Shown here: piece by piece, positions 52,112 to 61,021 of the stretch
How positions within the stretch are numbered: the first letter of the stretch is position 1
Layout of the letters: every line of letters starts with the position of its first letter
Position numbers and translations under genes: made by a program
Assembly: GCF_003293595.1 (NCBI RefSeq)
Contig: NZ_CP022162.1
Span: forward strand, 94,346-158,345
DNA: 64,000 nucleotides
From: Microbacterium sp. PM5
Lineage (GTDB): Bacteria > Actinomycetota > Actinomycetes > Actinomycetales > Microbacteriaceae
Direction of reading: 5' to 3'
The notes under the pieces: generated by a model
The model's input: only the letters and a program-made list of their open reading frames with translations
Databases searched by the model: none
Told to the model about the DNA's origin: nothing

Positions 52112-52268
52112 ATCTGCGGTGTGCGCGACGTCGTGAGCACCGTTTGCGACCCCGCGTTCCGTGTGGCTGCTGGGCGTTTCGCCAGCACGCCCGATGAACA
52201 TGCTCGGTCCGTGGAGTTGGCGCGGACCGGCGTGTGACGATCGGCGAGCACGATCGGAGAAGGAACAC

Positions 52269-52985
52269 ATGGACGAACGTCGGCAGGCGCGCGACGCACT
52301 CTCGCGACGGACCCTCCTGACCGCGGGTGTGGGGTCTGCGGCGGCGCTGGCGCTCTCGGCGTGCTCCGCGGTGGCGACGGGCGCTCCGCCGACGACCGTC
52401 CACGCGGCGTCGGCATCCCCTTCTGCGAACGACGCGCCGCTGATCATGCTCATCCGGCATGCGGAGAAACCGGCGGCATCCGGGGTGCCGTACGGTGTGG
52501 AGCCCGACGGCTCGCAGGATGCCGAGTCGCTCACCGTCGCCGGATGGCAGCGTGCTGGTGCGCTCGTGGGACTGCTCGACCCGCGCACGTCGCAGGGCCC
52601 GGTGCCCGTGCGTGCGAGTCTCGGGCGCCCGACGCGCCTCATCGCGGCCGATCCGGAGAAGGGGAGCAAACGCCCCGCGCAGACGGTGACCCCGTTGGCC
52701 GCGCGGCTGGGGCTCACTCTGGAGACGACGTGGAAGAAGGACGACACGGCCGCGCTTGCCGCGGCGCTGCGTACGACGACGGGGTGCACGCTCGTCGCCT
52801 GGGAGCACGAGCTGATCCCCGACATCCTGAGCCACCTCGGATCGATCGACCCGCCCCCGCCCGCCGCGTGGCCGGGGGATCGATTCGACCTGGTGTGGTG
52901 CCTCAGCCCCGCGGATGCCGGGGCGTGGCGATTCACGCAGGTGCCGCAGCTGCTGCTCGCCGGGGACCTTCTCGCGACCGCGTGA
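52269..52985 (+). CDS. Tat-exported histidine-phosphatase-like lipoprotein
   Basis: 238 aa. The N-terminus has a twin-arginine-type motif (SRRTLLTAG) and a lipobox Leu-Ser-Ala-Cys (Cys about 32). The mature domain opens LIMLIRHAEKPA, the RHxEK signature of the histidine phosphatase superfamily, with a later CTLVAWEHELIPDIL supplying the second His. Start at ATG 52269 with AGAAGGA upstream. Surface phosphatase of unknown substrate; Tat export suggests it folds in the cytoplasm. Confidence 0.82.
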   Translation: MDERRQARDALSRRTLLTAGVGSAAALALSACSAVATGAPPTTVHAASASPSANDAPLIMLIRHAEKPAASGVPYGVEPDGSQDAESLTVAGWQRAGALVGLLDPRTSQGPVPVRASLGRPTRLIAADPEKGSKRPAQTVTPLAARLGLTLETTWKKDDTAALAAALRTTTGCTLVAWEHELIPDILSHLGSIDPPPPAAWPGDRFDLVWCLSPADAGAWRFTQVPQLLLAGDLLATA

Positions 52986-53024: not shown

Positions 53025-53113
53025 GGAAGTGTGTCCGAGCGGCCTAAGGAGCATGGCTGGAATCCATGTAGGCGGGGTAACTCGCCTCGCAGGTTCAAAT
53101 CCTGTCACTTCCG
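53025..53113 (+). tRNA. tRNA-Ser (anticodon GGA)
   Basis: 89-nt class II tRNA. Acceptor stem GGAAGTG (53025-53031) pairs with CACTTCC (53106-53112), G discriminator at 53113. Anticodon stem CATGG/CCATG with loop CTGGAAT gives anticodon GGA, reading UCC/UCU serine codons. A long variable arm and T-loop GGTTCAAATCC are present. CCA is not encoded. It is followed by a hairpin and the arsenic locus. Confidence 0.95.
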
Positions 53114-53119
53114 CTCAGT

Positions 53120-53159
53120 CGAGAACCCCGTCCACGCGAAAGCCTGGGCGGGCTTCTCG
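53120..53159. terminator. Hairpin between tRNA-Ser and the GNAT gene
   Basis: Arms 53120-53133 (CGAGAACCCCGTCC) and 53146-53159 pair over 14 bp with two imperfect positions and a 12-nt loop. It lies between the tRNA (plus) and the convergent GNAT gene (minus), so it likely terminates both. Confidence 0.65.
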
Positions 53160-53161
53160 CG

Positions 53162-53677
53162 TTACGGCGCTGCGTCGGGGCGGCGACGTTCGACCAGGAT
53201 CGTGTCGCGCCACTGACCCGCCCACGGTCCGTAGGTCATGAGCGCGATGCGCTCCCGGTGACCGACGCGGCGGAACCCCGCTCGCTCGTGAAGGGCGAGG
53301 CTCGCATGGTTGTCCGGGAAGATGCTCGACTGCACGGTCCATACCCCGGCGGCATCCACCGCCTCGACGAAAGCGGCAAGCAGCGCCCGTCCCATACCGC
53401 CCCCGCGAACGCGGGCGGCGACGTACACCGAGTGTTCGACGACGCCGCGGTACACCTCGCGGGTGGAGACGGCCGACGCGGCGACCCAGCCGGTGACGCC
53501 GCCGTCGGCGTCGACGGCGACCAACCGGCCGACGCCGAGCTTGCCGGTGTCGAAGGCCTCCCACGCGGGCGGCTCAGCCTCGAAGCTGGCGTTTCCCGTG
53601 GCGAGGCCTTCGCGATAGATCGCCTCGACCTCCGGCCAATCTTCGGGCCGCATCGCGCGGATCGCGACCGCCTTCAC
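53162..53677 (-). CDS. arsN: PAT-like GNAT N-acetyltransferase (candidate ArsN)
   Basis: 171 aa GNAT of the phosphinothricin acetyltransferase type: IRAMRPEDWPEVEAIYREGL, TGNASFEAEPP, VEHSVYVAARVRGGGMGRALL (acetyl-CoA loop RxxGxG), SIFPDNHASLALHERAGF, GPWAGQWRDTILVERR (parts). ArsN enzymes, PAT homologues located in ars operons, detoxify the organoarsenical antibiotic arsinothricin. Here the gene overlaps arsR by 4 bp on the same strand, so it is arsR-co-transcribed. The family (PAT-like GNAT) is clear. The arsN role is inferred from that linkage. Confidence 0.75.
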   Translation of the reverse strand: MKAVAIRAMRPEDWPEVEAIYREGLATGNASFEAEPPAWEAFDTGKLGVGRLVAVDADGGVTGWVAASAVSTREVYRGVVEHSVYVAARVRGGGMGRALLAAFVEAVDAAGVWTVQSSIFPDNHASLALHERAGFRRVGHRERIALMTYGPWAGQWRDTILVERRRPDAAP

Positions 53678-54021
53678 GGGCGGAGCGCGTTCGCGGCCTG
53701 GTCGAGGGCATCGGTGACGACGCGGAAGTACGCCCAGCGCCCACGCTGCTCACGCGTGGCGAGCCCGGCATCCACGAGAAGCTTCATGTGGTGGGACACG
53801 GTCGGCTGGGACAGGCCGACCGGTGCGGTGAGGTCGCAGATGCAGGCTTCACCGCCCGGCGATGCGGCGATCAGCGACAGCAGGCGCACCCGCGTGGGGT
53901 CGCCAAGCGCCTTGAAGGTGCGGGCGAGCATCTCTGCATCGTCCGTCGTCAGTGCATTCGCGGGCGCGGTCGAGCGGCACCCGTCGGCGGTGTTCGTCAG
54001 GAGGGGCAGCAGCGTCGGCAT
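53674..54021 (-). CDS. arsR: ArsR-family arsenic-responsive repressor
   Basis: 115 aa from ATG 54021 (GTG 54036 is an alternative). Winged-helix repressor: ARTFKALGDPTRVRLLSLIA, then GEACICDLT with the CxC metal pair at the start of the recognition helix, then VGLSQPTVSHHMKLLVDAGL. E. coli ArsR has a third Cys (CVCDLC); here it is Thr, but an N-terminal Cys (ADGCRS) could act as third ligand, as in other lineages. Divergent from the flavoprotein gene across two ArsR-type operators; overlaps the GNAT gene by 4 bp. Confidence 0.92.
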   Translation of the reverse strand: MPTLLPLLTNTADGCRSTAPANALTTDDAEMLARTFKALGDPTRVRLLSLIAASPGGEACICDLTAPVGLSQPTVSHHMKLLVDAGLATREQRGRWAYFRVVTDALDQAANALRP

Positions 54022-54041
54022 CTTTCGATTGTGCACCTCGT

Positions 54042-54093
54042 ATTGACATCTGTCGATGCATGCCGGAATCTTGACCCATCGACAGATGTCGAT
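54042..54093. promoter_or_regulatory. Twin ArsR operators
   Basis: ATTGACATCTGTCGATG (54042-54058) and CATCGACAGATGTCGAT (54077-54093) are inverted copies, each an ATYGACA-N2-TGTCGAT palindrome, 19 bp apart in the arsR/flavoprotein spacer. Symmetric placement fits coordinate repression of both transcripts. Confidence 0.8.
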
Positions 54094-54109
54094 ACGAAGG
54101 AGGACTCCG

Positions 54110-55432
54110 GTGGATGACGCACTGCCCGTCGTCGTGATCGGCGCCGGCCCCCAGGGGCTCGCCGCCGCCGCTCACCTGATCGAACGCCGGATGCCGGTCG
54201 TCGTGCTCGAAGCGGGAGACACTCCGGCCGCTGCGGTGGCCGAGTGGGGCCATGTGCGCCTGTTCTCCGACTGGTCCGAGCTCGTCGATGCCGCCAGCGC
54301 TCGCCTCCTTGACGCGACGGGCTGGACACCGCCGCCGAGCGGCTACCCCACCGGCGCGCAGTGGATCGGTCGCTATCTCGCACCGCTGGCCGACGCACTC
54401 GGCGATCGTGTTCGTTACGGCGCGCGCGTCGTCGGCGTCTCGCGGTCGGGACGCGACCGCCTCGTCGATGCCGGTCGCGGCGATCAGCCCTTCACGGTGC
54501 ACGTCCGACCGACCGGCGGCGACGACTACCGCCTCGCGGCACGCGCCGTCATCGACGCCTCCGGTACGTGGGAGACCCCCAACCCCGCGGGTGCGGACGG
54601 TCTGCCGGCTCTCGGCGAGCGCGCGGCGGCCGACCGGCTCAGCTACCGCATCCCTGATTTCCGAGATCGCTCCGGGTTCGAGGGCAGACACACCGTCGTC
54701 GTCGGTTCCGGGCATTCCGCCCTCACCGCGGTCTTGGCCCTGGCACGATTGGCGCGCCGCGACCCGTCCACGACGGTGACCTGGGCGCTGCGTCGTGCGA
54801 GCGCGCGGAAGGCGTTCGGCGGGGGTGAAGCAGACGAGCTGCCCGCGCGCGGAGCCCTCGGCATCCGGGCGAAGGAGTTCGTGGATGCCGGTCTCGTCTC
54901 GCTCGTGACGGGGTTCCGCGTGGAACGCGTCACGGATGCCGGTGATGGCGTGGTCCTCGTGGCGGAGGACGGTCGTCACCTCGCTGCCGACAGGGCCGTC
55001 GTGCTCACCGGGTTCCGCCCCGACTTGTCGTTCCTGTCGGCGCTGCGTCTGGAGCTCGACTCCACCTTGCAGGCTCCCGTTCGCATCGCCGCCGAGGTTG
55101 ACCCGAACGTGCACTCGTGCGGCTCGGTCGCCGCCACCGGCGCCGCCGACCTCGCCCACCCCGAACCGGGTTTCTTCATCGTCGGCGCGAAGTCGTACGG
55201 CCGCGCGCCGACCTTTCTCGCGCTCACCGGGTACGAGCAGGTGCGCAGCGTCGTGGCCGAAGTGGCGGGCGATCACGAGGCCGCACGGCGTGTCGAGCTG
55301 GTCTTGCCCGATACTGGCGTGTGCGGCGGTGCCGGGCTCTTCGACGCCTCGGGCGCTTCGCGTGGCGGCGCCTGCTGCGCACCGCCGCCTCAGCCCGTCT
55401 CGATCATCCCGACCGCGCCCGCCCTCTCCTGA
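54110..55432 (+). CDS. ArsO-like FAD/NAD(P)-dependent flavoprotein
   Basis: 440 aa. GTG at 54110 with AAGGAGG 6 nt upstream. FAD site VVVIGAGPQGLAAAAHLIE; NADPH site VVVGSGHSALTAVL; AVVLTGFRPDLSFL; and FFIVGAKSYGRAPTFLALTGYEQV, typical of flavin-containing monooxygenase-like proteins found in actinobacterial ars operons (ArsO type). The C-terminus has a Cys cluster (VCGGAGLF and GACCAPPP) that could bind arsenic. The reaction is not established for this family. First gene of the arsC operon. Confidence 0.8.
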   Translation: MDDALPVVVIGAGPQGLAAAAHLIERRMPVVVLEAGDTPAAAVAEWGHVRLFSDWSELVDAASARLLDATGWTPPPSGYPTGAQWIGRYLAPLADALGDRVRYGARVVGVSRSGRDRLVDAGRGDQPFTVHVRPTGGDDYRLAARAVIDASGTWETPNPAGADGLPALGERAAADRLSYRIPDFRDRSGFEGRHTVVVGSGHSALTAVLALARLARRDPSTTVTWALRRASARKAFGGGEADELPARGALGIRAKEFVDAGLVSLVTGFRVERVTDAGDGVVLVAEDGRHLAADRAVVLTGFRPDLSFLSALRLELDSTLQAPVRIAAEVDPNVHSCGSVAATGAADLAHPEPGFFIVGAKSYGRAPTFLALTGYEQVRSVVAEVAGDHEAARRVELVLPDTGVCGGAGLFDASGASRGGACCAPPPQPVSIIPTAPALS

Positions 55433-55451
55433 CACCCGAACGAGGAATGCC

Positions 55452-55856
55452 ATGACCGACTCCACCAAGCCCGCCGTCCTCTTCGTCTGCGTGCACAACG
55501 CCGGCCGCTCTCAGATGGCCGCCGGATACCTCCGTGCGCTCGCCGGCGACCGCATCGATGTGTTCTCGGCCGGCAGCGAGCCGGGCAACGCGGTCAACCC
55601 GGCAGCCGTGGCCGTGATGGCCGAAGAAGGCATCGACCTGTCCTCGGCCACCCCGCAGATTCTGACCACGGACGCCGTGCGCAAGGCCGACGTCGTCATC
55701 ACGATGGGATGCGGGGATGCATGCCCCATCTTCCCCGGAAAGCGCTACGAGGATTGGCAGCTGACCGACCCGGCGGGCCAGCCCGTCGAGGTCGTCCGCG
55801 GGGTGCGTGACGACATCAAGGGCCGGGTGCAGGAACTCATCGCCAGCCTGAGCTGA
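55452..55856 (+). CDS. arsC: Arsenate reductase ArsC (LMW phosphatase fold)
   Basis: 134 aa. Phosphatase loop VLFVCVHNAGRSQMAAGYL (Cys-x5-Arg-Ser), further cysteines in ITMGCGDACPIFPG, and KRYEDWQLTDPAGQPV supply the redox relay region. Reduces arsenate to arsenite with thioredoxin or, in actinobacteria, mycothiol. It follows the flavoprotein gene by 19 bp. No Acr3 or ArsB efflux gene is adjacent; the next gene is a dicarboxylate symporter. Confidence 0.92.
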   Translation: MTDSTKPAVLFVCVHNAGRSQMAAGYLRALAGDRIDVFSAGSEPGNAVNPAAVAVMAEEGIDLSSATPQILTTDAVRKADVVITMGCGDACPIFPGKRYEDWQLTDPAGQPVEVVRGVRDDIKGRVQELIASLS

Positions 55857-55960
55857 CCGGCTGCGGCTCGAGGGGGCGGGAAACGAATCCCGACCGCCGG
55901 GAATGCGCCGGTCATCGCCGCCGTTGGAGTGACGGGCGGTCCGCGTTCGCGTCTCACCCG

Positions 55961-56013
55961 CGTCATCGTGCGTCATCGTGACTCGCGAGTGCACCGGCCG
56001 CGACGTAACGTCG
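55961..56013 (+). promoter_or_regulatory. Symmetric promoter region of the symporter gene
   Basis: In order: CGTCATCGTG twice in exact tandem (55961-55970, 55971-55980), palindrome ACTCGCGAGT (55981-55990), and odd palindrome CGACGTAACGTCG (56001-56013) which overlaps a TAACGT -10 candidate (56006-56011). These suggest regulated expression; the regulator is unknown. The 210-bp gap 55857-56066 holds no gene. Confidence 0.55.
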
Positions 56014-56066
56014 ACACCCTGCGAAGTTCCACCCGGCATCCGCCGAAACAGGAGATATCCCCCCTC

Positions 56067-57476
56067 ATGAGTTCCACCAGCACCACCGCGCCCGCCGCGC
56101 GTCCGCCCAAGCCGAAGAAGCCGTTCTACCGCTCGTTCGGCTTCCAGATCACGGTCGCGCTGATCGCCGGCATCCTGCTCGGCATCCTCGCCCTGAACCT
56201 CGGTCCGGATGCCGCGGGCAACCCCAACGGCCTGTCCGCGACCCTGTCGACCATCGGTTCGTCCTACGTGACGCTGCTGAAGGCTGCCGTCGTCCCGCTC
56301 ATCTTCCTCGCGGTCGTCGCCAGCATCACGCAGCTGCGCAACGTGACCAACGCCGCGCGGCTGGCGGGTCAGACCCTGCTGTGGTTCGGGATCACGGCGC
56401 TCATCGCCGTCACCATCGGCATCGTCCTGGGCATCACGATCCAGCCCGGTAACCGCGTCGCCCACGACCAGCTCACGACCGGCGCCCCCTACACGGTCGG
56501 CACGTGGTGGAACTTCCTCAAGGGCCTCATTCCGCAGAACGTCCTGGGTCTGACCGTCTCGAGCTCCGCAAGCGACTCCGGTGCGATCACCTCGACGGTC
56601 GGATTCAACGTGCTCCAGGTCATCGTGGTCTCGGTCGCCGTCGGCATCGCCGCGCTCAAGGTCGGCAAGCGTGCCGAGCCGTTCGTCGCGTTCACGCAGT
56701 CGTCGCTGAAGATCGTGCAGCGAGTGCTCTGGTGGATCATCCGCATCGCGCCCCTCGGCACGCTCGGCCTCATCGCCTCGGCGGTCGTGCAGTACGGCAC
56801 CGACAAGCTGCTCACGCTGGTCTGGTTCGTCGTGGCCGTCTACGTCGGACTCGTGCTCGTGCTGTTCGTCGTCTACCCGATCCTCGTCAAGAGCCACGGC
56901 CTGTCGATCAAGCAGTACTTCTCCGGCGTCTGGCCGGCCGTGCAGCTCGGGTTCGTCTCGCGCTCCTCGATCGGCACACTCCCGCTGACCCAGCGCGTGA
57001 CCGAGCGCAACCTCGGCGTGCCGCGCGAGTACGCGTCGTTCGCGGTGCCGCTGGGCGCTACGACCAAGATGGACGGCTGCGCCGCGATCTACCCGGCGAT
57101 CGCCGCGATCTTCGTCGCCCAGTTCTTCGGCATCGAGCTGAACATCGTGTCGTACCTGCTGATCGCGCTCGTCTCGGTCGTGGGCTCGGCGGCCACGGCC
57201 GGCACCACCGGCGCGACGGTCATGCTCACGCTGACCCTCTCCACCCTCGGCCTGCCGCTGGAGGGTGTCGGTCTGCTCCTCGCGATCGACCCGATCCTCG
57301 ACATGGGCCGCACCGCGGTCAACGTCGCAGGCCAGGCCCTGGTGCCCACGATCGTCGCGAAGCGCGAGGGCATCCTCGACCGCGAGCTGTACGACGCGCC
57401 GCGCGACGGCGAGCCGTTCGCCGACGACTCGGCCGACGACGCCGACGAGCAGGCCCCGGCACTCGCGCGCAGCTGA
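56067..57476 (+). CDS. Dicarboxylate/amino acid:cation symporter (DAACS family)
   Basis: 469 aa, GltP/DctA fold. Helices from about 28. HP1 SRSSIGTLPLTQR (serine-rich motif), helix 7 GATTKMDGCAAIYPAI (variant of NMDGT), HP2 SAATAGTTGATVM and helix 8 DPILDMGRTAVNVAGQ. Takes up glutamate, aspartate or C4-dicarboxylates with H+ or Na+. ATG at 56067; AGGAG lies upstream at wide spacing. Acidic tail after about 435. Confidence 0.92.
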   Translation: MSSTSTTAPAARPPKPKKPFYRSFGFQITVALIAGILLGILALNLGPDAAGNPNGLSATLSTIGSSYVTLLKAAVVPLIFLAVVASITQLRNVTNAARLAGQTLLWFGITALIAVTIGIVLGITIQPGNRVAHDQLTTGAPYTVGTWWNFLKGLIPQNVLGLTVSSSASDSGAITSTVGFNVLQVIVVSVAVGIAALKVGKRAEPFVAFTQSSLKIVQRVLWWIIRIAPLGTLGLIASAVVQYGTDKLLTLVWFVVAVYVGLVLVLFVVYPILVKSHGLSIKQYFSGVWPAVQLGFVSRSSIGTLPLTQRVTERNLGVPREYASFAVPLGATTKMDGCAAIYPAIAAIFVAQFFGIELNIVSYLLIALVSVVGSAATAGTTGATVMLTLTLSTLGLPLEGVGLLLAIDPILDMGRTAVNVAGQALVPTIVAKREGILDRELYDAPRDGEPFADDSADDADEQAPALARS

Positions 57477-57481
57477 TGACT

Positions 57482-57519
57482 GATCGCGACGCGCCGGTTC
57501 AGGCCGGCGCGTCGCGATC
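57482..57519. terminator. 16-bp perfect hairpin between symporter and transglutaminase genes
   Basis: GATCGCGACGCGCCGG (57482-57497) and its exact complement (57504-57519) flank a 6-nt TTCAGG loop. It begins 5 bp after the symporter stop and extends into the last six codons of the convergent transglutaminase gene. Bidirectional terminator, partly coding. Confidence 0.85.
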
Positions 57520-59745
57520 GGCCAGGCCGGAGCCCGGCCGCACGACGAGCGACCACGGCAGCGCCACGACGCGCGCGCGCCGCGCTGCGGGCAGTGCCGC
57601 CAGCATGGCCGATCGGATGCCGACAGCGGCGCTCATCGCGGCGGTATCCGGGCCCGCGCCGGCCGCGTCCGCCGCGTAGTTCGCCCGCTCGACGGCGGCC
57701 ACGAGCTGAGACATCGGCGTCGCGGGGGCACCCCCGGCGCTGACGAGGAAGGCGCCGAAGGCGCGTGGCGAGCGCGACGACGGCACCGGCAACCCCGCGT
57801 CGATCGCGGTGTCCTGCACGAGGCGCCACGCGGCGGTCACCGTTCCGCGCCGGCGCAGCATGAGCCGCCGCACCGCCCCCGCCACCCCCGGCAGCGCGGC
57901 GACCACGATGACGGCGCCGAGGATGCTCAGCAGCGGACGCAGATCGATCAGCGTCGGGCCCGAGCCTGCGGCATCCGTCTGCGCGCCCTGCTGCGGATCG
58001 TTCACGTCGGCCGTCGGAGCGGTCGTCGGAGCGGTCGTCGCCTCCGGAGTGGCCGAGGTCGTCGGCGGCGTGGTCGCGGTCGAGGCGGCGCTGTCGAACC
58101 GCGTCTCGGTGCCGAGGCCTTTGGTCGGCTCGAACGGGACCCATCCGATGCCGCGGAAGTACACCTCGGGCCACGCGTGCAGTTGGCGCCCCGTCACATC
58201 GATGACGCGCTGGCCGTCGATGACCTGGCCCGTGAACGAGCCGGGAAGGAACCCGACCACGATCCGCGTCGGCATGCCGAGGCTGCGAGCCATGAGGGCG
58301 AAGGCGCCCGCGAAGTGCACGCAGTATCCGGTCTTGGCTTGGAGGAAGGCGGCCACGGCGTCGACGCCCTGTCCGTCGAAGCCGTCCTGCACCGGCGCGT
58401 CGAGCGAGTACGTGAACTCCGGACCGCGGAACCAGTCCTGCAGAGCGATGAGCTTGTCGTAGTCGGTGGCGGCCTGCGCGGTGACCTGGCGAGCGAGGCG
58501 CGCGATGATCGGCGGGCTGCCTGCCGGGATGGAGTCCACGTCGATGCGCAGACCCGCACCTCCTGCCGACGAGGCGCGGATCTGCTCGAGCGTCGGCTGG
58601 GCGATGTCGGAGACGACCGTGTACTGCTGTCCCTGCGTCGCTCCGGCCGCGCCGGCGACGGTGCGGTTGTACGGGGCGAACTGCCACGCCCCGGTCAATC
58701 CGTCGACCTCGGTGGCCGGGTAGGGGACGGGCGCGTACGCCGACGCGAGGTTCTTGATCGCGACGGTCGTGCGGGTCTGTACGACGGCGATGTCCGCCGA
58801 GAGCTCGACGGGCTCGAGCGGCGCTGCGCTCAGATCGACCGTGCTCGTGCGATCGGGCTGCCACACCGTGCCATCGAACAGCGACAGCGTCGCCACGCGC
58901 AGGTAGGGCACGCTGGTGCCGTCGGTGCGCAGGGTGAGCACCGTCGCGCCGTCCTGGCGCCGCAGGTCTTTGCCGAGATCCAGCGACGGATCGATCATCG
59001 TGGAGGTCCCGAACCCCGCCGCGGGAACCGACGCTTGCAGCGTGGGTCCGACCGCGAGCGCCGCGATGATCGCGACGGCGCCGATCGAGGTGGCGACGGC
59101 CGCGACGCCGCCGGCGCGCGCGGTGACGGCGCGTGGGGACGCGGCGGCGCTGGGTGTCTCGCGGGTGCGGGTCTCGGCGCGGATGAGCAGCAGCACGGAT
59201 GCCGCGAGCAGGACGAACGCCACGACGTCCACCCCGGCCGGTACGGCGATGGCCGGGATGAGCCAGACGGCGACCAGGGCGACGCTGGCCAGCAGCGGCA
59301 TCCGTGCGGTGACGACGACGTGATCGAGGGCGACGGTCAAGAGCCCCAGCGATGCGACGATGAGGAACACCAACGGCTGCGTCGGCGTCAGGGGAGCGAC
59401 GCCGTCCGCGATGAATGTGGATGCCGCAGCGATCGTGCGGGGCAGCGCCTCGACGAGCCCGCCGGTCGGGATCACGCCCAGGAGGGCGTTCGCCGGGAAG
59501 AAGACAGCGGTGACCGCCCCGGTCCACACGGCGAGCTCGACGAGCGTGACGACGATCACCGGCAGACGCAGGCGGCGCAGCCCGTAACCGAGGGCGAGCA
59601 GTGCGAACGGAAGGGCGATCGCGCCCCACAGCCATGAGCCGCTCTGCACGACGCGGGTCAGGGGGACGAGCGTGCTGAGGATGCCGAGCCACAGCGCCAC
59701 CGCGAGGCGCAGCTCTCCGCGGCGGCGGCGCTCACGAGGCGGCAT
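57499..59745 (-). CDS. TgpA-like membrane transglutaminase
   Basis: 748 aa. About six N-terminal membrane helices (to residue ~240), a DUF3488-type extracytoplasmic region, then the transglutaminase core: KTGYCVHFAGAFALMARSLG (catalytic Cys), DVTGRQLHAWPEVYF (His), and WVPFEPTKG (Asp-equivalent region). A Thr/Ala-rich linker, one more helix and a cytoplasmic C-terminal region follow. Homologues with moxR and DUF58 genes form a widespread but little understood operon. The ATG at 59745 overlaps the DUF58 gene by 14 bp. Confidence 0.9.
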   Translation of the reverse strand: MPPRERRRRGELRLAVALWLGILSTLVPLTRVVQSGSWLWGAIALPFALLALGYGLRRLRLPVIVVTLVELAVWTGAVTAVFFPANALLGVIPTGGLVEALPRTIAAASTFIADGVAPLTPTQPLVFLIVASLGLLTVALDHVVVTARMPLLASVALVAVWLIPAIAVPAGVDVVAFVLLAASVLLLIRAETRTRETPSAAASPRAVTARAGGVAAVATSIGAVAIIAALAVGPTLQASVPAAGFGTSTMIDPSLDLGKDLRRQDGATVLTLRTDGTSVPYLRVATLSLFDGTVWQPDRTSTVDLSAAPLEPVELSADIAVVQTRTTVAIKNLASAYAPVPYPATEVDGLTGAWQFAPYNRTVAGAAGATQGQQYTVVSDIAQPTLEQIRASSAGGAGLRIDVDSIPAGSPPIIARLARQVTAQAATDYDKLIALQDWFRGPEFTYSLDAPVQDGFDGQGVDAVAAFLQAKTGYCVHFAGAFALMARSLGMPTRIVVGFLPGSFTGQVIDGQRVIDVTGRQLHAWPEVYFRGIGWVPFEPTKGLGTETRFDSAASTATTPPTTSATPEATTAPTTAPTADVNDPQQGAQTDAAGSGPTLIDLRPLLSILGAVIVVAALPGVAGAVRRLMLRRRGTVTAAWRLVQDTAIDAGLPVPSSRSPRAFGAFLVSAGGAPATPMSQLVAAVERANYAADAAGAGPDTAAMSAAVGIRSAMLAALPAARRARVVALPWSLVVRPGSGLADRDAPA

Positions 59746-61021
59746 GGTGCACGCTCCGCGTCTCGCGTGACGCCAGCGCGTCGCTCCAGGCGGCGGCGAC
59801 GTCGCCGCCCGCGGTCAGCGCGCCGACGCGCCAGCCGGTGTCCACGGCGGCGGCCAGCGCCTCGCGTGACTCTGATACGGGAAGAAGGATCGGCATGGTG
59901 CTGTGGTGCGGCACGGGGGCGAGCGCGACGACGTCCGCGGTCGTGAGGCCACCGGTCACGACGATCACGGGACCGGCCGCGATTCCCGTGAACAATCGGG
60001 CGAGCGCCTCGAGGGGAAGATCGCGCCGTGCGGTGATCGTGGCGAGGGCGACGGCGAGATGCTCGACGCCCGCCGTGTCGCCCCCCTCGATCGGATCGCA
60101 CAGCACGGCGCCGTCGGCGTCGATCACGGTGACGAGGTAGCCTTCGCGCACCAATCGCGCCGTCGTCGAGACGCAGGCGGAGACCGCCGTCTCGAAGGCG
60201 GGGTCGGCCCCCGCGGCACGCCCCGCGGCCGGCGACCAGCGTGCCGCGCCGCGATCGAGCACGACGACGGCTTCGGGGGTCGTCTCCTGCTCCTCCTGAC
60301 GCACCATCAGCTCGTCGCGATGAGCGCTGGCACGCCAGTGGATGCGTCGCATCGAGTCGCCGGGTGCATACGTGCGCGGGATCAGGTTGTCGGCGCCCTG
60401 ACCCATCCGATCCGTCACGCTGCGGGTGCTGCCCCCGGCGTCGCCGGGGAGGTCGTGCAGCTCGTCGAGATCGACGATCTCGGGCACGATCACCAGCGGC
60501 GAGGTGTCGCCGACCGTCCGGCGTCGCCGTGTGAAGCCGAACGGATCGGTCGTCACGAGCGCCAAGGGCCCCACGCGGCGAAGTCCACGGCGTTCGGCGC
60601 GCACGGCGTAGTCGACCTCGACCTGCGACGGGCCGGCGATCGCCGACCCGGTCGGCGGCAGCACGCCGTCCGGCGCGGCGCCGGCCGTGGATGCCGCGAC
60701 CACGCCGTCGGGCACGGCGTCGCGCCACCGCGCCTCGCTGGTGGGCAGAGAGGAACGGATCTCGACGGTGAGGCGTACCCGCACCTCGCTGCCGGCGGCG
60801 GCGACGTCGGGGGAGAAGGCGCGGGTCACCCGCGCGGAGCTCGGGAGCAGGTACAGGGTGGCGGCGCTGACGACCACGGCTGCCGCCAACAGTGCGCCCA
60901 CGTAGGCGAGCTCCGCGATGCCGAAGCGCTGGGCCAGCACGCCGCACGCCGCGGCGAGCACCAGTGCGCCCAGGCCGCGCAGGGTCAGCGGCAGGCGAGA
61001 CAGCAGGGGCCAGCGGGGCAT
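59732..61021 (-). CDS. DUF58-domain membrane protein
   Basis: 429 aa from ATG 61021 (MPRWPLLSRLPLTLRGLG). Two N-terminal helices are followed by a beta-rich region (VRLTVEIRSSLPTSEARW) and the DUF58 motif region RTYAPGDSMRRIHWRASAHRDELMVRQEE (in parts: YAPGDSMRRIHWRASAHR). A VWA-like C-terminal part starts at AVVVLDRGA. Member of the MoxR/DUF58/transglutaminase module. It begins 13 bp after moxR. Confidence 0.9.
   Translation of the reverse strand: MPRWPLLSRLPLTLRGLGALVLAAACGVLAQRFGIAELAYVGALLAAAVVVSAATLYLLPSSARVTRAFSPDVAAAGSEVRVRLTVEIRSSLPTSEARWRDAVPDGVVAASTAGAAPDGVLPPTGSAIAGPSQVEVDYAVRAERRGLRRVGPLALVTTDPFGFTRRRRTVGDTSPLVIVPEIVDLDELHDLPGDAGGSTRSVTDRMGQGADNLIPRTYAPGDSMRRIHWRASAHRDELMVRQEEQETTPEAVVVLDRGAARWSPAAGRAAGADPAFETAVSACVSTTARLVREGYLVTVIDADGAVLCDPIEGGDTAGVEHLAVALATITARRDLPLEALARLFTGIAAGPVIVVTGGLTTADVVALAPVPHHSTMPILLPVSESREALAAAVDTGWRVGALTAGGDVAAAWSDALASRETRSVHHAAS

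What the first reader, a model, noticed from the sequence alone, without database searches (positions are those of the whole stretch)
53025..55856. Compact ars locus with a PAT-like acetyltransferase, no efflux pump, beside a tRNA gene
arsR and a phosphinothricin-acetyltransferase-like GNAT overlap by 4 bp on one strand. An ArsO-like flavoprotein and arsC lie on the other, with twin ArsR operators between. PAT-like GNATs in ars operons (ArsN) are known to acetylate the organoarsenical antibiotic arsinothricin. No Acr3/ArsB is adjacent although ArsC makes arsenite. The block starts 49 bp after tRNA-Ser, a common integration site. Together this suggests a small module specialised for an organoarsenical rather than simple arsenate efflux.
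Basis: partly seen in the sequence, partly recalled or inferred. Interest (0 to 1): 0.72.

Follow-up and report, generated by a model that had tools for sequence, protein, structure and literature searches.

The report
Compact arsenic-response gene block beside tRNA
A four-gene block run by an arsenic sensor, with no efflux pump beside it, pairs an arsenate reductase with an unnamed flavin enzyme and an acetyltransferase related to one that disarms an arsenic-containing antibiotic; related sets occur in other bacteria, and what the flavin enzyme and acetyltransferase act on is not known.

Summary
The block is real: tRNA-Ser, GNAT, arsR (4-bp overlap), twin palindromic operators, flavoprotein, arsC. 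Relatives with the same tRNA but no block show an insertion (about 53117-56027). The complete genome has no Acr3; ArsB-, ArsP- and aquaporin-family genes exist, but outside any ars context.

Two names change. The flavoprotein is not ArsO (54.6 bits, cut-off 425; the FR-008 plasmid carries both). It belongs to an unnamed cysteine-tailed family: of 80 named loci, 72 have an arsR and 61 an ArsK-like MFS gene within the fetched flanks. The GNAT belongs to a sister clade of ArsN1a; where ArsN1 has Arg75, which contacts arsinothricin and gates the site, all 31 clade members have serine.

In the genus 64 of 72 GNAT orthologues lie within 2.5 kb of the flavoprotein and 69 of 72 in ars loci. All 61 ArsRs compared keep Cys60 and Cys62; none has the methylarsenite-type C-terminal pair.

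Best reading: an As(III)/Sb(III)-induced module in which ArsC reduces arsenate, the flavoprotein oxidises a trivalent arsenical or antimonite (inferred), and the GNAT blocks an arsenical amino acid, perhaps not arsinothricin (inferred). New variant of a known kind.

The parts
53025..53114 (+). tRNA-Ser (GGA), insertion site of the block
   Evidence: ARAGORN; relatives with the identical tRNA and no ars block after it
53162..53677 (-). GNAT acetyltransferase, sister clade of ArsN1a; Ser71 and Arg73 stand where PpArsN1 has Arg75 and Arg77 (mapped through 9igk and an annotated ArsN1a, not by a direct alignment to PpArsN1)
   Evidence: NCBIfam ArsN1a 116.9 bits, cut-off 170; alignment to 9igk; tree and residues; model pLDDT 93.8; Foldseek TM 0.85 to PpArsN 5jtf
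53674..54021 (-). ArsR repressor; Cys15, Cys60, Cys62
   Evidence: NCBIfam HTH_metalloreg 91.7 bits, cut-off 55; conservation in 61 ArsRs
54042..54057 (+). ArsR operator 1 (ATTGACATCTGTCGAT), inferred
   Evidence: exact match; pattern conserved in relatives
54078..54093 (+). ArsR operator 2 (ATCGACAGATGTCGAT), inferred
   Evidence: exact match; pattern conserved in relatives
54110..55432 (+). flavoprotein of an unnamed ars-linked family; Cys337, Cys405, Cys422 and Cys423 invariant in alignments of actinobacterial members
   Evidence: Pyr_redox_2/3; alignments A1 and A3; not ArsO
55452..55856 (+). ArsC, LMW-PTP-type arsenate reductase: C13-x5-R19, Cys87, Cys91
   Evidence: LMWPc 77.1 bits; 136 bits to PDB 3t38 arsenate reductase; below the NCBIfam ArsC equivalog cut-offs, best 105.2 against 157.6
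53117..56027 (.). inserted block
   Evidence: homology to sites without the block stops at 53114-53116 and resumes at 56028-56049

Best explanation
An ArsR-controlled arsenic/antimony response module without its own pump, carried as a small insertion at tRNA-Ser. SHOWN from sequence: the insertion, the gene order, two palindromes between divergent transcripts, the families, and purifying selection. INFERRED: ArsR dimers on the twin operators shut both transcripts; As(III) or Sb(III) bound by Cys15, Cys60 and Cys62 releases them. ArsC reduces As(V) to As(III). The flavoprotein, with FAD, NAD(P)H and a C-terminal cysteine trap, binds a trivalent pnictogen species (methylarsenite or another organoarsenical, or antimonite) and oxidises it to the less toxic pentavalent form. 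The GNAT N-acetylates an arsenical or phosphinothricin-like amino acid that it holds differently from PpArsN1. As(III) may leave through the chromosomal glycerol channel or another carrier; this is the weakest step.
For: Operator pattern in 59 of 60 loci, about 270 times denser than elsewhere in those loci. GNAT-flavoprotein adjacency: 64 of 72 in the genus; 21 of 40 in a class-wide sample with the own genome left out, 20 of the 21 on opposite strands. Genome co-occurrence in that sample: 23 both, 6 GNAT only, 13 flavoprotein only, 105 neither (p 1e-12, not corrected for kinship). ArsR-GNAT fusion protein in a Rhodococcus plasmid beside the flavoprotein and an MFS gene. In 80 named flavoprotein loci an arsR match in 72 and an MFS match in 61. 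Three to 13 cysteines from TGVC to the end in 78 of 80; the motif was not found in 2. First and second codon positions far better kept than third. ArsV, reported to oxidise methylarsenite, with ArsW, ArsP or ArsK exporting the product (PMC10080717, passages), parallels the flavoprotein-MFS pair.
Against: No ArsV sequence could be compared. I found no assay of this flavoprotein family in the papers searched. If it oxidised As(III) it would undo ArsC, so its substrate must differ or the two act at different times. GNAT was matched in only 4 of 80 mostly proteobacterial flavoprotein loci, so the two are not obligate partners. The window has no MFS gene. The exit route for As(III) is not identified, and G080 with the same block has Acr3 elsewhere. 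The flavoprotein model is poor at 302-342 and 401-440.
Confidence: 0.55

Rival explanations
1. One reading: a module specialised for arsinothricin, the GNAT being ArsN1 and the flavoprotein ArsO.
For: ArsN1a is the best NCBIfam hit. The clade is sister to an annotated ArsN1a; the joint clade has support 0.979. Fold matches PpArsN at TM 0.85. arsN1 sits in ars operons and its product acetylates arsinothricin (PMC6465285, passages).
Against: Below the ArsN1a cut-off in 13 of 13 clade members scanned. Ser at the Arg75 position in 31 of 31, and a 5-residue insertion near the C-terminus in the Micrococcales members. The fold fits phosphinothricin acetyltransferases as well. The flavoprotein is not ArsO. 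ArsR has inorganic-type cysteines.
Confidence: 0.25
2. A worn-down ordinary inorganic arsenic operon: the pump was lost or lies elsewhere, ArsC plus leakage through a glycerol channel suffices, and GNAT and flavoprotein are auxiliary passengers.
For: Of 60 loci, 12 have Acr3 and 24 an aquaporin gene near. Close relatives with the block or its parts have Acr3 elsewhere in the genome, among them G080 and G035. ArsC is strongly conserved. A glycerol-channel gene is present.
Against: 24 of 60 loci have neither carrier within the fetched flank. Selection keeps all four genes. GNAT and Acr3 tend not to share a genome: 13 of 69 GNAT genomes have Acr3, 37 of 80 others (not corrected for kinship).
Confidence: 0.25
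3. The flavoprotein is a disulfide reductase that recycles the thiol used by ArsC.
For: Second NCBIfam hit is YpdA bacillithiol disulfide reductase, 45.6 bits against cut-off 339.9. Foldseek hits include YpdA and thioredoxin reductases. It lies upstream of arsC on the same strand here.
Against: No CxxC among the invariant cysteines C337, C405, C422, C423. ArsC queries matched in only 36 and 29 of 80 named loci, the MFS queries in 61. Several relatives have separate thioredoxin-reductase or CoA-disulfide-reductase-like genes nearby. The motif LTGFRPD resembles that of flavin monooxygenases (recalled).
Confidence: 0.15

Closest known systems
ArsN1 (PpArsN1; NCBIfam NF040503, NF040504), arsinothricin N-acetyltransferase
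   Same: GNAT of the PAT/ArsN fold in ars loci; Arg77 and Tyr80 equivalents kept (Arg73, Tyr76)
   Different: below both family cut-offs; Ser at the Arg75 position; insertion near the C-terminus
ArsO of Streptomyces FR-008 (NCBIfam NF040505)
   Same: two-dinucleotide-binding flavoprotein in ars loci
   Different: 54.6 bits against cut-off 425; FR-008 carries both as separate genes; cysteine tail
ArsV with ArsW/ArsK (methylarsenite oxidase plus MFS pump)
   Same: flavin enzyme linked to arsR and, in 61 of 80 named loci, an ArsK-like MFS match
   Different: no MFS gene in the window; ArsV sequence not available here, membership untested
ars clusters of Pseudarthrobacter sp. AG30 (PMC6256500, passages)
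   Same: arsR, arsC genes, FAD oxidoreductase and ArsN-like acetyltransferase
   Different: that strain also has an aquaglyceroporin-like channel and five arsenate reductase genes; the window block has no channel
PDB 9igk, P. syringae phosphinothricin acetyltransferase PSPTO_3321
   Same: top hit of the GNAT among solved structures by sequence and by fold
   Different: Arg at the position that is Ser here

Membership tests
ArsN1 family A | score above NCBIfam NF040503 cut-off (170) | tested here: not met
   116.9 bits; 12 further clade members 117.5-144.4; annotated ArsN1a from Pseudomonas 231.5
ArsN1 | Arg75/Ala76/Arg77 that contact arsinothricin and gate the site (PMC6465285) | tested here: not met
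   Ser71-Thr72-Arg73; Ser in 31 of 31 clade members, Arg-Ala-Arg in the annotated ArsN1a; HMMER alignment to 9igk. Mapping is indirect: PpArsN1 itself was not shown aligned
ArsN1 | encoded in ars operons | tested here: met
   64 of 72 beside the flavoprotein, 5 more beside other ars genes, 3 with none found
ArsN1 | acetylates arsinothricin | not testable with these tools
   needs an enzyme assay
ArsO | score above NCBIfam NF040505 cut-off (425) | tested here: not met
   54.6 bits; FR-008 ArsO 554.1
ArsV | sequence similarity to published ArsV | not testable with these tools
   the paper is not held and no sequence named ArsV was met
LMW-PTP arsenate reductase (ArsC) | CX5R loop and redox cysteines | tested here: met
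   C13-x5-R19, C87, C91; PDB 3t38 at 7e-39
LMW-PTP arsenate reductase (ArsC) | NCBIfam equivalog cut-off | tested here: not met
   best 105.2 bits against 157.6 (TIGR02689)
ArsR/SmtB arsenic repressor | winged helix and As(III)-type cysteines | tested here: met
   Cys60 and Cys62 in 61 of 61, Cys15 in 60 of 61; the second N-terminal Cys of 57 of 61 is Arg16 here
methylarsenite-selective ArsR | C-terminal Cys pair | tested here: not met
   no Cys after position 85 in 61 of 61
ars operon with pump | Acr3 in the genome | tested here: not met
   no SBF or Acr3 match
ars operon with pump | ArsB | tested here: inconclusive
   one protein far away passes Pfam's ArsB cut-off (74.1 bits, cut-off 22.2) but fits CitMHS better and misses three NCBIfam ArsB cut-offs: 110-131 bits against 415, 457 and 760
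tRNA-borne insertion | block absent at the same tRNA in relatives | tested here: met
tRNA-borne integrative element | integrase and att repeat | tested here: not met
   the four genes fill the block; best match to the last 20 tRNA bases in 53115-60000 is 13 of 20

The most novel reading that the evidence does not exclude
The serine-type GNAT clade is a new ArsN subfamily that disarms an undescribed arsenic-containing natural product other than arsinothricin, working with a cysteine-tailed flavin oxidase of trivalent organoarsenicals; actinobacteria would then be under pressure from an arsenical antibiotic not yet known.
Probability: 0.2. Interest if true: 0.75.

Novelty: new variant of a known kind. 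Interest (0 to 1): 0.42.

Why it matters
It ties an unnamed flavoprotein family and a distinct acetyltransferase clade to one arsenic sensor, with a natural fusion of sensor and acetyltransferase. That gives two defined proteins to assay for resistance to arsenical antibiotics or antimonite, and corrects a likely misannotation as ArsO. The gene combination itself was already noted by annotation in Pseudarthrobacter AG30 (PMC6256500); what this adds is the residue change, the linkage counts, the operator conservation and the pump-less insertion.

Tried and rejected
Selenocysteine in the flavoprotein: many relatives showed 'one TGA inside'. In the 20 loci then fetched, where a stop showed it was the terminator after the cysteine tail. 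Rejected.

Recent transfer of arsC alone: its protein is 94-99% identical in G080, G035, G009 and G055, but third codon positions are about as diverged as in the neighbours.

ArsP as the missing exporter: the protein passes Pfam's ArsP_1 cut-off (196.9 bits, cut-off 32.3) but lies in what I read as a zinc-uptake cluster (my reading of the open frames) and misses both NCBIfam exporter models that it hits. Aquaporin: the one match lies in what I read as a glycerol operon. ArsK: one match of 19 bits, cut-off 400; its surroundings were not looked at.

The transporter gene downstream (named by my reading, no family search) as part of the module: it is present where the block is absent.

Founding member of the flavoprotein family: I recall an Sb(III) oxidase called ArsO from Ensifer adhaerens ST2. 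Searches did not find that paper and no sequence could be compared. An Ensifer adhaerens E-60 plasmid carries the flavoprotein with arsR, a GNAT and arsK.

What was left out of counts: one search drops partial and weak matches (flavoprotein pieces under about 250 residues and weak paralogues; GNAT pieces in G047, G072, G081, G009 and G137; GNAT paralogues of 43% identity or less). Hence 121 flavoprotein genomes where tallied 125. Acr3 counts 50 genomes because a fragmentary hit in G091 was kept; 49 pass the cut-off. The lists were cut at their weak end. The 60 loci are 60 of 136 matches, chosen by me and not at random. The tree has 46 sequences of my choice, three of them partial (L173, L191, L238). 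Against my reading of Ser71: the four core paralogues in that tree also have Ser there, with Lys in place of Arg73.
Full report
What is there. The window lies in a 3.16-Mb one-contig genome, 99.99% complete. A tRNA-Ser(GGA) at 53025-53114 is followed after 47 bp by a GNAT gene and arsR on the minus strand, overlapping by 4 bp, then by a flavoprotein gene and arsC on the plus strand. Between the divergent starts lie two 16-bp palindromes, ATTGACATCTGTCGAT and ATCGACAGATGTCGAT. They are the only exact sites of that pattern in the genome; with up to two mismatches there are six, against three for the reversed control pattern.

Is it more than chance? I fetched 60 loci out of 136 flavoprotein matches in 149 genomes of the genus. 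In all 60 the flavoprotein gene is divergent from an arsR. The operator pattern, up to two mismatches, occurs in 59 of 60 of these regions: 84 sites in 11,962 bases, against 19 in 741,932 bases elsewhere in the same loci. Against ten relatives the four genes keep mostly 80-100% identity at first and second codon positions and 47-67% at third positions, with 74-83% at third positions in the closest relative G080. Three short ArsC pieces (103-171 bases, L103, L068, L104) depart from this, with 70-84% at first and second and 66-84% at third positions. All four genes thus look to be under selection.

An insertion at the tRNA. Thirty genomes with the identical tRNA-Ser were compared over 1.5 kb on each side. 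Three carry the block beside it (the window genome, G080, G035). In seven the window's downstream transporter gene is there, in sixteen the transglutaminase-like gene, in four neither; both gene names are my reading. Against G081, G138, G134 and G046 homology stops at 53114-53116 and resumes at 56028-56049; G046 has about 650 bases of other DNA in between. Two more (G048, G146) have the transporter gene after about 900 bases of other DNA. The four genes fill the block, leaving no room for an integrase, and no copy of the tRNA end was found up to 60000. Ars clusters with related genes also lie beside tRNA-Ser genes in L045, L054 and L070; 47 of the 60 loci or more show no tRNA-Ser at all, so this is a recurrent but not a general position.

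The missing pump. No SBF-family or Acr3 match is in the genome. One protein beside a gene that I read as thrS passes Pfam's ArsB cut-off (74.1 bits, cut-off 22.2), fits CitMHS better (124.4) and misses the NCBIfam ArsB cut-offs (110-131 bits against 415, 457 and 760); it may still carry arsenite. ArsK gives one match of 19 bits, cut-off 400. The ArsP_1-family protein passes Pfam's cut-off but lies in what I read as a zinc-uptake cluster, and the one aquaporin lies in what I read as a glycerol operon. No exact operator site lies at any of them. In the 60 loci, 24 have an aquaporin match near, 12 have Acr3 and 24 neither within the fetched flank. Pumps may lie elsewhere: G080, the closest relative with the same block, has two Acr3 genes at other places, and G035 has Acr3 too. 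In the genus 42 of 121 flavoprotein genomes have Acr3 and 79 do not.

The flavoprotein. It is not ArsO by NCBIfam's standard: 54.6 bits, cut-off 425. The Streptomyces FR-008 plasmid carries a protein annotated ArsO at 554.1 bits and, as a separate gene, a relative of the window protein at 51.9 bits. The arsO name goes back to FR-008 (Wang 2006, as cited in PMC6514093, passages). Members were found in Actinomycetes, Proteobacteria, Bacillota and MAGs of other phyla. Invariant in the alignments of actinobacterial members are the glycine-rich dinucleotide motifs, Cys337 and a C-terminal TGVC...CC tail. In 78 of 80 named loci the tail has 3 to 13 cysteines; in 2 the motif was not found. The model (mean pLDDT 72.2) resembles two-dinucleotide-binding flavoproteins in general, both monooxygenases and disulfide reductases, with low TM scores, so it does not settle the activity. 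A review reports that ArsV oxidises methylarsenite and that ArsW, ArsP or ArsK exports the product (PMC10080717, passages). That is the closest described activity that I found; membership is untested because no ArsV sequence was available.

The GNAT. Its best family is ArsN1a, but at 116.9 bits against a cut-off of 170. Twelve other clade members score 117.5 to 144.4, an annotated Pseudomonas ArsN1a 231.5. In PpArsN1, Arg75, Ala76 and Arg77 of the other chain contact arsinothricin through atoms O1 and OT, which I take to be its carboxylate, and Arg75 and Arg77 appear to gate the site (PMC6465285, passages). The aligned residues here are Ser71, Thr72 and Arg73. The mapping runs through 9igk and the annotated ArsN1a, because the direct alignment to PpArsN1 was not shown. 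Ser is present in 31 of 31 clade members, including Rhodococcus, Streptomyces, Micromonospora and Hymenobacter proteins. The 31-member clade has support 0.756 and its union with two ArsN1a-like proteins 0.979. The core paralogue of the genus falls outside; it too has Ser at this position, but Lys for Arg73. The model (pLDDT 93.8) fits PAT, MAT-like and ArsN structures alike.

Linkage. In the genus, 64 of 72 GNAT orthologues lie within 2.5 kb of the flavoprotein, 50 in the same direction and 14 opposed. Five of the other eight lie beside other ars genes; three (L249-L251) show none by these queries. In 147 genomes of the class, the own genome left out, 21 of 40 GNAT matches are adjacent and 20 of these opposed; 19 are not adjacent. 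In a Rhodococcus pyridinivorans plasmid ArsR and GNAT are one protein. GNAT genomes of the genus carry Acr3 less often (13 of 69) than others (37 of 80), p 5e-4 without correction for kinship.

What the sensor says. All 61 ArsRs compared keep Cys60 and Cys62, and 60 of 61 keep Cys15; 57 of 61 have a second cysteine at 16, which is Arg in the window. None has a cysteine after position 85, whereas the methylarsenite signature is reported as a pair at 101-102 (PMC6514093, passages). The likely inducer is therefore As(III) or Sb(III), the former being ArsC's product. This speaks against a module that ignores inorganic arsenic.

Judgement. The best account is an As(III)/Sb(III)-induced module that joins arsenate reduction with oxidation of a trivalent species and acetylation of an amino-acid-like toxin. 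The last two activities are inferred. Prior print: a genome announcement of Pseudarthrobacter AG30 lists arsR, arsC genes, an FAD oxidoreductase, an ArsN-like protein and an aquaporin-like channel in its ars clusters (PMC6256500, passages). Searches for the combined set and for an ArsR-GNAT fusion showed no closer description; most subscription papers are not in that library.

Noticed in passing
L253 3078-3636 (also L070), genome G009: A second copy of the module whose GNAT lacks roughly residues 38-133, while the first copy (L060) is intact.
   Followed up: partly
window 52161-52985: A 274-residue open frame with no NCBIfam match lies between the NUDIX-like gene and tRNA-Ser; the search of tRNA-side loci matched it only in the window genome itself.
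   Followed up: partly
L043 6426-7100, L059 9013-9687 and others: ArsR-ArsC fusion protein divergent from an aquaporin, CoA-disulfide-reductase-like flavoprotein and arsC set in several loci of the genus.
   Followed up: partly
G000:C1:1926072-1926935 (L149 5561-6571): ArsP_1-family permease beside a Fur-like regulator and an ABC metal-uptake set (my reading), so perhaps a zinc protein rather than an arsenic exporter.
   Followed up: partly
L110 5983-7398, L111 5983-7377, L114 5974-7440: Proteobacterial relatives of the flavoprotein end in a longer tail with more cysteines than the window protein.
   Followed up: partly
window 56067-57476: A gene that reads as a dicarboxylate/glutamate-type transporter lies next to the block and is present where the block is absent, so it is not part of the insertion.
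   Followed up: yes
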